From: Candidatus Bathyarchaeota archaeon
Lineage (GTDB): Archaea; Thermoproteota; Bathyarchaeia; 40CM-2-53-6; FEN-987
NCBI GenBank assembly: GCA_023247835.1
Contig: JAHFFU010000067.1
Location: forward strand, 1-6,244
Reading direction: 5' to 3'
DNA length: 6,244 nucleotides
This document shows positions 2,543 to 6,115 of this stretch, piece by piece; position 1 is the first letter of the stretch, and every line of letters starts with the position of its first letter. The notes beneath the pieces are model-generated. The model was given only the letters and a program-made list of their open reading frames with translations, ran no database searches and was not told where the DNA came from. The position numbers were made by a program, and so were the translations under genes.

Positions 2543-3475
2543 ATGGAAATGGATGCCGCCGAATTTTTTCTCGGGTTTGGATTAATTGCAGTTTCCACCC
2601 TCAACTCGGCTGCAGTCATCTACTTAGTGCGCCAACAAAAGGGCGCAACTAAGCCGAAAGAAAGCCCGGAAGAGGACGAAGAAGAAGCCAGTGGAGAAGA
2701 AGAGGCGCAACCGGAAGCCCCAGCTGCTCCTAAACGGCCCACCACCAAGGCCGAAATTCTTGCCTGGCGGCGGAGAATAATTGAGGATTTGGAGCGCGAG
2801 CGGGGCACGAAGGTCATCACGATGATTCACAAGAAGGAACTCTGGACTGAGCCGGGGGAGGACTCTGAAATTGTGATCGAGGATACGACGAAGGTGCTCA
2901 TGGAGCTTCGAAAGACCCCGCCGGATAAACCGGTCGACCTGATTATCCACACTCCAGGCGGTTATGCCCTGGCCGCCCAGATGATGGCGATGGCCATCAA
3001 ATTCCACCCAGCCAAGGTCACAGTCATGGTCCCATTTTACGCCATGTCAGGGGGTTCGCTCATGAGCCTGGCGGCGAGCGAAATTCGGATGGAAAAATAT
3101 AGCGTCTTAGGGCCAGTAGATCCTCAGATACCTACTCCTGATGGCATGTATCCAGCAGGTTCGTTGGCTACTCTCATCAAAACTAAGCCGATTCAGAACA
3201 TTACTGACAGAATGATCATTTTGGCCGAGGCTGGCAACCTAGAGATAGACAACGCTAAGGCGTTTGTAATGTGGCTTCTGGAGGGCAAGATGGACAAGGA
3301 ACAGGCAGAGCGCGTCGCAGATTTCCTGGCGCGCGGTTACATGTCACATGCAACCCCGATTACACTAGACGTGGCGCGTACGATAGGGCTTAACGTGGTT
3401 GAGGGCATACCTGACAAGGTCTATGAGCTGTTCAAGACGTTCGCGTTCACCGGGCAGTCTTACAAAGGGTCTTGA
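2543..3475 (+). CDS. membrane-anchored SDH/ClpP-class serine protease, motif-complete
   Basis: This 310-residue paralogue of the preceding gene begins 6 nt after its stop, so the two form an operon. Layout is one N-terminal membrane helix (about 8-29), an acidic Pro/Ala-rich linker (about 38-65), then an SDH_sah-type domain (about 68-300). Family motifs are intact: RGTKVITMIHKKE (87-99), HTPGG (136-140, the likely oxyanion-hole segment), nucleophile Ser169 in FYAMSGGS, GPVDPQ (190-195), lysines 213 and 215 in a region comparable to the SppA general base, and SHATPIT with His269. It should be an ATP-independent peptidase acting on membrane-near or signal-peptide-like substrates in the cytoplasm; substrate and topology are inferred from family and charge distribution. 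An in-frame ATG at 2549 is an alternative start. Such proteins are often labelled ClpP-class or periplasmic protease. Confidence 0.9.
   Translation: MEMDAAEFFLGFGLIAVSTLNSAAVIYLVRQQKGATKPKESPEEDEEEASGEEEAQPEAPAAPKRPTTKAEILAWRRRIIEDLERERGTKVITMIHKKELWTEPGEDSEIVIEDTTKVLMELRKTPPDKPVDLIIHTPGGYALAAQMMAMAIKFHPAKVTVMVPFYAMSGGSLMSLAASEIRMEKYSVLGPVDPQIPTPDGMYPAGSLATLIKTKPIQNITDRMIILAEAGNLEIDNAKAFVMWLLEGKMDKEQAERVADFLARGYMSHATPITLDVARTIGLNVVEGIPDKVYELFKTFAFTGQSYKGS
3004..3036 (+). repeat. 33-nt block identical to 2068-2100
   Basis: This is the partner of the identical block in the upstream paralogue, in the same reading phase and one residue offset. It encodes the strand leading to the nucleophile Ser169. 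Confidence 0.8.
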
Positions 3476-3570: not shown

Positions 3571-3891
3571 CTAGATTTTCTCTAGGAGCTTCCTCAGCTC
3601 CGAGCGGCCCTTCACACCAGTCAGCCTATCCCATTCTTTCCCTTTCGTGAAGAGGACTAGAGTGGGGATGCTTTTTATGTTGAATTGGGCCGCTAAGTCT
3701 CGGTTATTCTGAACGTCCACCTTCGCGAAGACGACCCGACCATCAAACTCTCTCGCAAGGCCTCTCAAAATTGGGGCCATCACATGGCAGGGCGCGCACC
3801 AGCTAGCCCAGAAATCCACAGCTACCGGTTTTCCGCCTCGCAACAGTTCTGGCAGGTTTCCTAGGGTAGCCTGAAGAATTCGTCCGCTCAT
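3571..3891 (-). CDS. trxA: thioredoxin
   Basis: This 106-residue cytosolic thioredoxin should reduce protein disulfides. It has the complete fold signature: VDFWASWCAPC with the active-site cysteines at 32 and 35, the buried Asp26 before FWA, the cis-proline loop SIPT (Pro76), and a C-terminal helix after GVKGRSEL. The active site is CAPC rather than CGPC, a variant seen in many prokaryotic thioredoxins. The frame stays open to 3996, but the extra 35 residues do not look like thioredoxin and would overlap the upstream membrane-protein gene. The ATG at 3891 gives a standard-length protein, and GGGTG lies 4 bases before it. It follows the - strand gene at 3926-4180 by 34 bases, so co-transcription is likely. 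It converges on the protease operon with a 95-base gap in which I see no clear element. Confidence 0.93.
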   Translation of the reverse strand: MSGRILQATLGNLPELLRGGKPVAVDFWASWCAPCHVMAPILRGLAREFDGRVVFAKVDVQNNRDLAAQFNIKSIPTLVLFTKGKEWDRLTGVKGRSELRKLLEKI

Positions 3892-4180: not shown

Positions 4181-4210
4181 TCACCTATGCCTGATCCTGC
4201 TGTATATCGG

Positions 4211-4221
4211 GCTTAAATATC
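4211..4221. promoter_or_regulatory. near-palindromic TATA element, possibly bidirectional
   Basis: GCTTAAATATC reads as TTAAATA on the + strand and ATATTTAAG on the - strand, both good archaeal TATA boxes. On the - strand it predicts a start near 4191, about 10 nt before the ATG of the small membrane protein. On the + strand it predicts a start near 4241, 28 nt before the LAGLIDADG ATG and inside the first CTGTAGGAT repeat. One element may therefore serve two divergent transcripts. Confidence 0.5.
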
Positions 4222-4239
4222 GGAAACATTAAGCAATCA

Positions 4240-4269
4240 CTGTAGGATTAAGTAATGCCTGTAGGATAA
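4240..4269 (+). repeat. tandem CTGTAGGATWA direct repeats, 19-bp period (candidate operator)
   Basis: CTGTAGGATTA (4240-4250) recurs as CTGTAGGATAA (4259-4269), 10 of 11 identical and exactly 19 bp apart, about two helical turns. The first copy overlaps the predicted + strand transcription start, and the second runs into the LAGLIDADG ATG. That position would suit a repressor that blocks initiation, but no binding is shown. Confidence 0.7.
4249..4267 (+). repeat. left arm of 19-bp inverted repeat around the LAGLIDADG gene
   Basis: TAAGTAATGCCTGTAGGAT matches the reverse complement of 4625-4643 at 18 of 19 positions; the only difference is T versus C at 4256. The two arms point inward and bracket the whole LAGLIDADG gene over 395 bp. 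Confidence 0.85.
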
Positions 4270-4280
4270 TGACTACAGGC
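4257..4280 (+). promoter_or_regulatory. hairpin/palindrome with the LAGLIDADG start codon in its loop
   Basis: GCCTGTAG (4257-4264) and CTACAGGC (4273-4280) are perfect 8-bp inverted repeats separated by 8 bases, GATAATGA, which contain the ATG at 4269-4271. In mRNA this would be a stem with the start codon in the loop. In DNA it is a dyad operator covering the translation start. Confidence 0.6.
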
Positions 4281-4625
4281 CGAAGTGATTTGCGAAAGGA
4301 AGACAAAGTATGGCTTGCTTGCGCCTTTGATTCTGAGGGATGGATTATACCGTATGACTGCGGCTCCCCCGACTGCGCAAAACGCCATAACGTTCACTAT
4401 CAACTTGGAATTGCAACAAAAGATTTGAATTTCGTACAACACTTTCGCGACATCATAGGACATGGCTCAGTGCATCCAAAACCCAAGATTGGTCAATGGT
4501 CTTACTTCCTCACGAAAACAAGCGTTCTGGAACGTACACTGAAAGATATTCTTCCTTACCTCATAACGAAGCAAGACAAGGCACAGACCATTCTAACTTG
4601 CATAGCCCATCGTAGAAAACCGTAA
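4269..4625 (+). CDS. single-motif LAGLIDADG protein (homing endonuclease-like)
   Basis: This 118-residue protein carries one LAGLIDADG-type helix, LACAFDSEGWI (16-26), with acidic residues Asp21 and Glu23, the latter at the catalytic metal-binding position. The second half fits the family fold: YQLGIATKDLNFVQHFRDIIG (44-64), then a QWSYFLT strand (76-82) and LPYLITKQDKAQ (95-106), the usual C-terminal helix. With one motif it should act as a homodimer, like I-CreI but shorter. It is free-standing: no intron or intein context is visible, and inverted repeats bracket it. A Cys/His cluster (C31, C36, H40, H43) may bind metal. It could be a homing endonuclease or a LAGLIDADG-derived DNA-binding regulator. 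Its stop lies 17 bases before the next gene, suggesting one transcript. Confidence 0.8.
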   Translation: MTTGRSDLRKEDKVWLACAFDSEGWIIPYDCGSPDCAKRHNVHYQLGIATKDLNFVQHFRDIIGHGSVHPKPKIGQWSYFLTKTSVLERTLKDILPYLITKQDKAQTILTCIAHRRKP

Positions 4626-4643
4626 TCCTACAGGCGTTACTTA
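4625..4643 (-). repeat. right arm of 19-bp inverted repeat
   Basis: This arm overlaps the last base of the LAGLIDADG stop codon and the first base of the next gene's ATG. It matches the left arm at 18 of 19 positions. Its extension TAATCCTACAG (4623-4633) is also the exact reverse complement of the first upstream direct repeat at 4240-4250. Confidence 0.85.
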
Positions 4644-5416
4644 TGCCAAGGACGTTTGACGCGGCGAAGGCAAGAGGAGTTATCACAGTAGTGGAGAAAC
4701 TCAAGGGTTCTTCATCTTTTCGTAATGTATTGAAAGAGACCGCGCGTTGGAGTATCATAAAAGATAACAAAACACTCAGACTTTATCTTAACCTCCTAGT
4801 CGCAGGCAAGGTCCTATCTGTACGCGCGCACGATGTAGGATCCGTATATCGGCAGGAAATTTACTCTCTGAGATCCAATAAACCTAGGGTCTGGGTGGGG
4901 CTTGGCATTCTTCGGAGGCATGGCCTAAACTGGGACGCGCCCCTAACCGATATACGCGCGATTTCAACTGATTTCGAAGGCTTAGTTCGTTCTAAGAATT
5001 TCGACAACGCTCGAATGGCATCACTAGAGGATTGTTTGACAGATGAGGTATATACTGACGCCAAGAAGAACACTGGCACCACCTCCTTTGTCATAGCCAT
5101 GATATCAACGACGAAAGTTGATCTTCCCTACCTGATTCGCCGTGCAGATCAGATGCATGTGGGTAAAGCTATACGCATTCTCTTCAGACGAATCTTAGAG
5201 ATCACATCTTCTAATCACACAGAATTTGATGGAACCGCATTCTTTGCCGTGCGAAATCACTTTCTGAGAATAGCCAGGCAGTACACGCAAACAGGCTTTT
5301 GGAACTTGGTTGAAAGTGAGGTGGGGGTAGGCAACTTTGGTATCTCAATTGCCAACAGCCTCACCGAATCCGAAGTAATTGGTGCAGCGAGTAAGCAACT
5401 TGGAGCGATTGGCTAA
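4643..5416 (+). CDS. unrecognised protein with possible winged-helix N-terminus; candidate AbiEi-like antitoxin
   Basis: This 257-residue soluble protein is not one I recognise by family. Residues about 10-75 look like a winged helix: helices around GVITVVEKLKG and FRNVLKETARWSII, a recognition-helix-like TLRLYLNLLVAGKVLSVRA (44-62), then a wing leading to VYRQEIYSL (68-76). The rest (about 100-250) is mixed alpha/beta without clear motifs. No signal peptide or membrane segment is evident. The functional hint is context: a nucleotidyltransferase-like gene follows in the same frame with no gap, the arrangement of AbiEi (wHTH antitoxin) with AbiEii (nucleotidyltransferase toxin). AbiEi proteins are known to bind inverted repeats at their own promoter, and repeats lie right before this ATG. 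The assignment is inference. No good Shine-Dalgarno precedes the start. Confidence 0.7.
   Translation: MPRTFDAAKARGVITVVEKLKGSSSFRNVLKETARWSIIKDNKTLRLYLNLLVAGKVLSVRAHDVGSVYRQEIYSLRSNKPRVWVGLGILRRHGLNWDAPLTDIRAISTDFEGLVRSKNFDNARMASLEDCLTDEVYTDAKKNTGTTSFVIAMISTTKVDLPYLIRRADQMHVGKAIRILFRRILEITSSNHTEFDGTAFFAVRNHFLRIARQYTQTGFWNLVESEVGVGNFGISIANSLTESEVIGAASKQLGAIG
5402..5405 (+). promoter_or_regulatory. Shine-Dalgarno supporting a TTG start
   Basis: GGAG lies inside the end of the upstream gene, 11 bases before TTG at 5417. It supports reinitiation or coupled translation at that unusual start. Confidence 0.4.
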
Positions 5417-6115
5417 TTGAAAAGACCGAAGGAAATCCGAGCCCCGCCTAAGGAATGGGTCAAAATCCTTCTTGTCGCCTACCCGTTCCTAAGAGAAAAG
5501 AAATCCATAGGTGACCTAGTGCTCTTTGGTTCTCAAGCGCTTTCTATCTACATGAGGAGTCCATTACGCAGTAAGGACCTTGACCTTCTTTCGGCACAAG
5601 TTAGTTATCGACATATGGAAGAGTTATCCTCGCAACTCTCCCAATTAGAGAATGTTGAATCGAGATCAATAACTGCCCAGACCAAAGTGTTTGGCCCAAG
5701 AAAAATGAGAACCTACGCAATAGAACTTCGGATTGCGGGAAAACCGTTTTTCGTTGAATTATTCGACAGCATATTAAATGGGAAACCCACTACTCTTCTA
5801 GCGCCATATCTTGCGCTCGAAAAGCGATGGGGGCTCGAAATCTGGGTGCCTGAACCTGAAGCCATATTGGCGCTTCGACTGGCCTTTAGACTCCCCGAAG
5901 GAATATCTAGATTCAACGCCACCCGACTAAACAGTTTCATCCACGAGAACAGACGCTCGATGAGGTTTAACCGTGTAGCTTCAATTCTCAAGGATTGGAA
6001 AATAGAGGGATGGGTGGAGAAGAACCTAATTGACCTGTACCGAAGAAATAAACTTCGCATAACAGGCGACGGTATGATAATCCCGGAAATCGAGAAAAAG
6101 CTCAAGAAATCGTAA
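5417..6115 (+). CDS. minimal nucleotidyltransferase-like protein; candidate AbiEii-like toxin
   Basis: This 232-residue protein has the core nucleotidyltransferase signature: LVLFGSQALSIY (34-45) with the G-S pair at 38-39, then SKDLDLL (52-58) with metal-binding Asp54 and Asp56. An acidic strand FFVELFD (111-117) could supply the third carboxylate (Glu114). A helix after VPEPEAILALRLAFRLP (144-160) resembles the conserved PE-x-LLALKL segment of AbiEii-like and DUF6036-like proteins, with Arg in place of the usual Lys. The C-terminus is basic. Members of this superfamily transfer nucleotides to tRNA or protein; the toxin role here is inferred from the wHTH-type partner upstream. Translation must begin at TTG 5417, right after the neighbour's TAA, because the next in-frame start candidates (GTG within LVLFG and ATG at residue 46) would remove the G-S motif or its strand. 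Otherwise the two genes are joined by stop readthrough. Confidence 0.75.
   Translation: MKRPKEIRAPPKEWVKILLVAYPFLREKKSIGDLVLFGSQALSIYMRSPLRSKDLDLLSAQVSYRHMEELSSQLSQLENVESRSITAQTKVFGPRKMRTYAIELRIAGKPFFVELFDSILNGKPTTLLAPYLALEKRWGLEIWVPEPEAILALRLAFRLPEGISRFNATRLNSFIHENRRSMRFNRVASILKDWKIEGWVEKNLIDLYRRNKLRITGDGMIIPEIEKKLKKS

What the first reader, a model, noticed from the sequence alone, without database searches (positions are those of the whole stretch)
4240..4643. LAGLIDADG gene bracketed by near-perfect 19-bp inverted repeats with extra motif copies
Four copies of a CTGTAG-centred motif occur in 400 bp: 4240-4250, 4259-4269, inverted at 4273-4280, and inverted at 4623-4635. The 4249-4267 and 4625-4643 arms match at 18/19 and end exactly at the next gene's ATG. 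Neither gene explains this. It could be (a) the ends of a small mobile cassette of about 395 bp carrying the endonuclease, (b) autoregulatory operators of the wHTH-type protein, split by insertion of the LAGLIDADG gene, or (c) LAGLIDADG binding sites. The right arm lies inside an operon rather than at an intergenic promoter, which favours (a) or a duplicated operator.
Basis: partly seen in the sequence, partly recalled or inferred. Interest (0 to 1): 0.7.

Follow-up and report, generated by a model that had tools for sequence, protein, structure and literature searches.

The report
Homing endonuclease splitting an operator palindrome
A tiny selfish DNA-cutting gene appears to have inserted itself into the middle of the palindromic control element of an archaeal toxin-antitoxin-like gene pair, so the two "inverted repeats" around it look like the two halves of the site it invaded.

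Summary
The repeats are real: arms 4249-4267 and 4625-4643 match 18/19, with a tandem third copy at 4230-4248 and a short inverted fourth at 4273-4280. They are probably not cassette ends. A homologous Bathyarchaeota locus without the LAGLIDADG gene (L001) carries the same two arms fused head to head, directly before the start codon of the winged-helix gene. Joining the window at 4267|4623 matches that site at 37 of 43 bases without gaps. Three more distant relatives also lack the gene and have an uninterrupted palindrome at that place, two of them weakly supported. The 118-aa protein weakly resembles I-CreI, a homodimer that cuts a 22-bp near-palindrome. Best reading: a free-standing homing-endonuclease gene inserted at the dyad centre of a palindromic, probably autoregulatory, operator of an AbiE-like operon. 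Cutting, binding and toxicity are untested. The left junction re-forms a 24-bp palindrome core using the endonuclease's own first codons, which may keep the operon regulated.

The parts
4230..4248 (+). Tandem extra left half-site TAAGCAATCACTGTAGGAT (3 of 19 differences from the main left arm)
4249..4267 (+). Left half of the split palindrome, TAAGTAATGCCTGTAGGAT
   Evidence: aligned to L001 3801-3819
4257..4280 (+). 24-bp core re-formed at the left junction, GCCTGTAG-GATAATGA-CTACAGGC; same 8-bp spacing as the joined site GCCTGTAG-GATTAATC-CTACAGGC (20 of 24 identical)
   Evidence: RNA hairpin of 4238-4290, z -3.31
4268..4622 (+). Inferred insert of 355 bp: one base plus the 118 sense codons of the LAGLIDADG gene; a 374-bp insert (4249-4622) fits almost as well
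   Evidence: 37 of 43 versus 36 of 43
4269..4625 (+). Single-motif LAGLIDADG protein, 118 aa, I-CreI-like; its stop codon TAA (4623-4625) lies in the right half of the palindrome
4623..4643 (+). Right half of the split palindrome, TAATCCTACAGGCGTTACTTA, ending on the A of the next start codon
4643..5416 (+). wHTH protein, 257 aa (winged helix, residues about 4-78, plus a second part); putative autorepressor/antitoxin
5417..6115 (+). Nucleotidyltransferase-like partner, 232 aa, motif GSx14DLD; putative toxin of the pair
4213..4219 (+). TATA-like TTAAATA upstream of the half-sites (by eye only)
   Evidence: sequence; not tested

Best explanation
The two arms are the halves of one palindromic element that originally stood uninterrupted before the start codon of a two-gene operon (wHTH protein plus nucleotidyltransferase-like protein). 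A free-standing, single-motif LAGLIDADG homing-endonuclease gene of about 355 bp, essentially just the reading frame, sits at the dyad centre (GGAT|TAATCC). Shown by sequence: the arms, a homologous site without the gene, the gapless join, the I-CreI-like similarity. Inferred: the wHTH protein binds the palindrome to repress its own operon, as AbiEi antitoxins do; the endonuclease dimer recognises the uninterrupted palindrome in unoccupied genomes, cuts at its centre and is copied in by break repair; its presence splits the site and protects its own copy. Because the target is non-coding, no intron or intein is needed.
For: L001 has 19-nt arms with 0 nt between them directly before the wHTH start codon, and no LAGLIDADG frame there. 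Joining window flanks at 4267|4623 gives 37 of 43 identical to L001 3801-3843, no gaps; of 81,600 two-piece joins tried this is the best; 40 mononucleotide shuffles of the stretch 4200-4680 reached at most 25 on a coarser grid of splits; the best uncut window match is 27. In L001 the next best places score 33 (same site, other strand) and 22. L002, L007 and L008 also lack the gene and have palindromes at or across the start (P 0.04, 0.004, 0.10; L001 0.003). GCC-N18-GGC spacing is identical in the joined site, L001 and L007 although inner bases differ on both sides together. The window/L001-type core occurs once in the 1.7-Mb G001. PDB matches are to I-CreI-type enzymes. Papers: homodimeric LAGLIDADG enzymes act at highly symmetric sites, and free-standing homing genes are generally limited to intergenic targets (PMC13405050, passages); I-CreI acts on a 22-bp pseudo-palindrome and a variant on a 24-bp palindrome (PMC6035192, passages).
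Against: L001 is another species (wHTH 56% identical, P0039), so this is a homologous site without the gene, not an empty allele. Only two of four relatives have a palindrome beyond P 0.01. The LAGLIDADG protein has one relative at E <= 0.01, scores below the Pfam cut-off, matches natural enzymes only weakly (I-CreI from 0.0031 upward, I-CvuI 0.0036, plain I-MsoI 0.95), best matches a PHROG labelled HNH endonuclease, and its model is poor. Of 25 other places of the same broad family none shows a comparable split palindrome; 5 of the 25 do have short paired ends (10-11 bp) reached by at most 3 of 100 shuffles. The tandem left copy makes the left boundary ambiguous: a 374-bp insert scores 36 of 43. 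No cutting, binding or mobility was tested.
Confidence: 0.7

Rival explanations
1. The arms are terminal inverted repeats of a small transposon-like cassette that carries the LAGLIDADG gene.
For: 18/19 arms flank the gene.
Against: Both arms are present and fused in L001, where the gene is absent; the join is gapless, so no target-site duplication is needed; the other named frames of the window are not transposases (Pfam scan of 8 proteins).
Confidence: 0.06
2. The LAGLIDADG protein is no longer mobile and has become a third, regulatory member of the operon that binds the half-sites (domesticated).
For: Its frame is intact; Asp 21 and Lys 101 pair with I-CreI residues that I recall as catalytic; it lies in the operon, and half-sites persist around it; a homolog with 85% identity ends at the same residue.
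Against: Absent from the four relatives with the operon that were inspected (ORF listings); one homolog found.
Confidence: 0.13
3. The palindrome acts mainly as an RNA hairpin before the start codon (translation or transcript control), not as a DNA operator.
For: The left core folds well as RNA (-15.2 kcal/mol, z -3.31; 1 of 200 shuffles as good); 5 of 10 predicted stem pairs have a two-sided change among three sequences.
Against: In one search the window row was the left junction, which breaks 2 of the 10 pairs, and three rows are few; a DNA dyad shows the same symmetry; the gene beside it encodes a winged-helix protein and AbiEi proteins bind such repeats as DNA (PMC7319586, abstract and passages).
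Confidence: 0.2
4. The gene lies in an archaeal intron whose ends pair as a bulge-helix-bulge motif, and the arms are the splice helix.
For: 5 of 25 other LAGLIDADG places of this broad family in the class show short paired ends (10-11 bp), which I read from memory as rRNA introns.
Against: The arms pair without two 3-nt bulges (by eye); the same arms are palindromic in the gene-less site; the flank is non-coding; no Rfam family matches the window at gathering scores.
Confidence: 0.03

Closest known systems
I-CreI / I-CvuI / I-MsoI (single-motif LAGLIDADG homing endonucleases)
   Same: Weak sequence similarity, mostly over residues 9-112 (I-CreI entries from 0.0031 upward, I-CvuI 0.0036, a 373-residue I-MsoI entry 0.0022 in two stretches, plain I-MsoI 0.95; best hit 3.2e-5 is an engineered single-chain protein, which I recall as I-CreI-derived); one motif per chain; gene at the centre of a near-palindrome of fitting length
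   Different: Those enzymes are intron-encoded (recalled); this gene stands free, is shorter (118 aa), and its site is a non-coding operator-like palindrome
Free-standing homing-endonuclease genes, as in phage T4
   Same: No intron or intein (PMC10448857, PMC3943268, PMC13405050, passages); such genes are generally limited to intergenic targets
   Different: LAGLIDADG type, archaeal context, inserted within its putative recognition palindrome in an operon leader
AbiE type IV toxin-antitoxin systems
   Same: Two adjacent genes, winged-helix first protein, nucleotidyltransferase-like second protein, inverted repeats upstream (PMC3985639 and PMC7319586, passages)
   Different: No match to AbiE families in Pfam or PADLOC; GSx14DhD rather than x15; one palindrome with adjoining arms rather than 23-bp repeats 3 or 13 bp apart

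Membership tests
Single-motif LAGLIDADG homing endonuclease | Sequence similarity to proven members | tested here: met
   phmmer hits to I-CreI 0.0031 and I-CvuI 0.0036 (weak); PADLOC HEase 3.8e-9
Single-motif LAGLIDADG homing endonuclease | Pfam LAGLIDADG_1 at the curated cut-off | tested here: not met
   13.2 bits against a cut-off of 23.1
Single-motif LAGLIDADG homing endonuclease | LAGLIDADG fold in a model | tested here: inconclusive
   pLDDT 40.8 from two sequences
Homing gene | Homologous site without the gene that restores an uninterrupted target | tested here: met
   L001, 37 of 43; another species, not an allele
Homing gene | Site-specific cleavage and transfer | not testable with these tools
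   needs enzyme assay
AbiE toxin-antitoxin | Two adjacent genes, the first with a winged helix | tested here: met
   window and four relatives; winged helix in the window model; co-transcription not tested
AbiE toxin-antitoxin | Nucleotidyltransferase motif hG[G/S]x9-15DhD | tested here: met
   GSx14D(L/I)D in 5 of 5 aligned partners; motif as given in PMC3985639
AbiE toxin-antitoxin | Match to curated AbiEi/AbiEii family models | tested here: not met
   none in Pfam at E <= 1 or, for the window proteins, in PADLOC at E <= 10
AbiE toxin-antitoxin | Toxicity and neutralisation | not testable with these tools
   needs expression in a laboratory strain
Transposon with terminal inverted repeats | Repeats belong to the element and are absent from the empty site | tested here: not met
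   both arms in gene-less L001
Archaeal bulge-helix-bulge intron | Two 3-nt bulges around a 4-bp helix at the junction (recalled) | tested here: not met
   arms pair along all 19 positions, one of them G-T (judged by eye)

The most novel reading that the evidence does not exclude
A homing-endonuclease gene that has made the operator of a toxin-antitoxin-like operon its target and repairs the damage it does: its first codons (ACT ACA GGC) rebuild the missing right half next to the left arm, giving a 24-bp operator core with changed centre (GATAATGA for GATTAATC). The repressor could then still control the operon, now including the endonuclease, while the changed centre resists the endonuclease. 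Host selection that keeps the operator symmetric would also keep the homing target available in other genomes.
Probability: 0.28. Interest if true: 0.75.

Novelty: new variant of a known kind. Interest (0 to 1): 0.56.

Why it matters
Homing genes often depend on introns or inteins to persist in conserved coding sites. Here the conserved site would be a repressor's palindrome, which both a dimeric repressor and a dimeric endonuclease can read. That offers a simple route for intron-less homing in archaea and a clear test: one short palindrome, two candidate binding proteins. In the searches made (all papers listed, 20 of 150 listed, 12 of 23 listed; open-access full text only) no title or abstract opening that I saw describes a LAGLIDADG gene inside a repressor operator; most of those papers were not opened.

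Tried and rejected
Terminal repeats of a cassette: rejected because both arms occur where the gene is absent. Bulge-helix-bulge or group I intron: no bulges by eye, no Rfam match. A general habit of this endonuclease family: 25 of the 29 matched places of PDLC03684 (26 of 256 genomes) were checked for flanking inverted repeats; none resembled the window (best 11 bp). In 5 of the 25 (L020, L025, L027, L028, L030) paired ends of 10-11 bp were reached by at most 3 of 100 shuffles. Left out were L031 and L040 (open frames of 794 and 870 aa), L033 (stop inside) and L042 (same contig place as L015). Shuffles there were mononucleotide and start codons were guessed.

Led nowhere: viral contigs for the wHTH family and for the palindrome, plasmids; Pfam, NCBIfam and PHROGs gave only weak, sub-threshold matches for the wHTH and partner proteins, PDB sequences nothing credible; promoter scan (bacterial model). 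The fold search of the wHTH model had no Foldseek match at E <= 0.001 and the second look covered mainly its winged helix; AbiEi was not among the rows shown, which excludes nothing. Four weak A1 matches in the phylum: three of those loci (L010-L012) hold frames that look to me like nucleotidyltransferases, in L013 I made out no clear gene; none was used as an empty site. The host was not pinned: among 398 genomes the neighbouring protease has long matches of at most 46% identity, short pieces up to 51%.

The contig-length comparison is indirect: 13 lengths are shared between 74 wHTH proteins and the 120 listed of 439 partner proteins, against about 1.1 with jittered lengths.

Changed on re-checking: the PDB similarity is stated more cautiously (plain I-MsoI only 0.95), the short paired ends in 5 of 25 loci are now told, and confidence went from 0.72 to 0.70 for that.

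Full report
Observation. The window has an inverted pair of 19 nt, 4249-4267 and 4625-4643, 18 of 19 complementary, and a direct 19-nt tandem, 4230-4248 followed by 4249-4267. The fourth, short copy CTACAGGC at 4273-4280 is one of only two + strand occurrences in the window. Dinucleotide shuffles gave such an inverted pair in 4 of 200 whole windows and 2 of 1000 500-base stretches.

The empty site. One scan of genome contigs gave two loci: L001, a Bathyarchaeota bin, and L002, a Brockarchaeota bin. Whole-genome searches gave L007 (G009) and L008 (G023): 3 of 256 genomes of the class of G001, G001 included; 6 of 398 of the phylum, two of them G001 and G002 and four weak; 1 of 12 of the class of G002, G002 itself. 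None of the four loci shows a LAGLIDADG frame before the wHTH gene (ORF listings), and a search with A2 (window protein plus P0075) rang in 3 of 256 genomes, not in G001, G009 or G023 (G002 was not in that search). In L001 the wHTH gene is preceded by TAAGCTATGCCTGTGGGATTAATCCCATAGGCGTTACTTTTG (3801-3842): two 19-nt arms, 3802-3820 and 3821-3839, with no base between them, 79% complementary, ending on the base before the TTG start codon at 3840. Joining the window at 4267|4623 gives a 43-base stretch identical to L001 3801-3843 at 37 positions without a gap. In L001 the same site on the other strand scores 33 and the next place 22. Among 81,600 two-piece joins this one scores best; an insert of 374 bp, using the tandem copy 4230-4248 as left arm, scores 36, so the left boundary is not settled. 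Uncut, the window reaches 27; 40 mononucleotide shuffles of 4200-4680, on a coarser grid of splits, reached at most 25.

What follows. The arms are best read as halves of a pre-existing palindrome, not part of a transposon. With the 355-bp reading the insert is one base plus 118 sense codons, and the stop codon TAA belongs to the palindrome's right half. No target duplication is needed. Insertion at the centre of a palindrome by a gene for a single-motif LAGLIDADG protein fits homing: passages of PMC13405050 say homodimeric members act at highly symmetric sites and that free-standing genes are generally limited to intergenic targets; passages of PMC3943268 say LAGLIDADG enzymes leave 4-base 3' overhangs and that multimeric enzymes are constrained to sites with palindromic symmetry; passages of PMC6035192 give the 22-bp pseudo-palindrome of I-CreI and a 24-bp palindrome cut by a variant. 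That this protein cuts this site is inference.

The operator. L007 has GCCTCTGTTGATATCAACGGAGGC ending 11 bases before its TTG, L002 TTGTAGAGATATCTATACAA ending 4 bases before its ATG, L008 CCTACGTACAATGGTACTTAGG across its start codon. Against 1000 first-order Markov sequences each, P is 0.003 (L001), 0.004 (L007), 0.04 (L002) and 0.10 (L008); the last two are weak. GCC-N18-GGC is the same in the joined window, L001 and L007 while inner bases change on both sides together, as a site read by a symmetric dimer, or an RNA stem, would. The window/L001-type core occurs once in G001, which suggests local autoregulation there; its absence from G009, G002 and G023 says little, since their palindromes differ in sequence. 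AbiEi antitoxins autoregulate through inverted repeats (PMC7319586, abstract and passages; PMC3985639, passages). This pair resembles AbiE in layout, but no AbiE profile matches, so I do not file it there.

The left junction. 4257-4280 reads GCCTGTAG-GATAATGA-CTACAGGC, 20 of 24 identical to the joined site and with the same spacing. The right half comes from codons 2-4 of the endonuclease; P0075 as predicted starts at the position of codon 8, though its true start is unknown. 4238-4290 folds as an RNA hairpin (z -3.31). I read this, with modest confidence, as a rebuilt operator that keeps the operon under control.

Limits. The empty site is in another species; recent mobility is not shown. The endonuclease family is nearly unsampled, and a survey of 25 of 29 places of its broad family found no second split palindrome, though 5 of the 25 had short paired ends of 10-11 bp. 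The window's own genome is not held. Endonuclease, wHTH and partner genes have lower third-position GC (0.42-0.48) than the three upstream genes measured (0.57-0.71), so the whole operon may be a foreign island.

Noticed in passing
1610-2536 and 2543-3475: Two adjacent genes for ClpP-like SDH-type serine proteases (PF01972), apparently a tandem duplication with acidic low-complexity stretches near the N-termini.
   Followed up: no
4269-6115: Third-position GC of the three operon genes (0.42-0.48) is below that of three upstream genes (0.57-0.71), as expected of an acquired island.
   Followed up: partly
L010 1156-1749, L011 1189-1746, L012 1192-1752: Positions about 105-185 of the wHTH family profile weakly match putative archaeal nucleotidyltransferases, echoing the nucleotidyltransferase-like antitoxin C-terminal domain described for AbiEi relatives.
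   Followed up: partly
L018, L022, L024-L030: LAGLIDADG frames ending in similar ASETIRR-like residues; I take this, from memory, as read-through into 23S rRNA exons, i.e. intron-borne endonucleases.
   Followed up: no
3571-3891 minus strand: Thioredoxin gene (PF00085), convergent with the protease genes.
   Followed up: no
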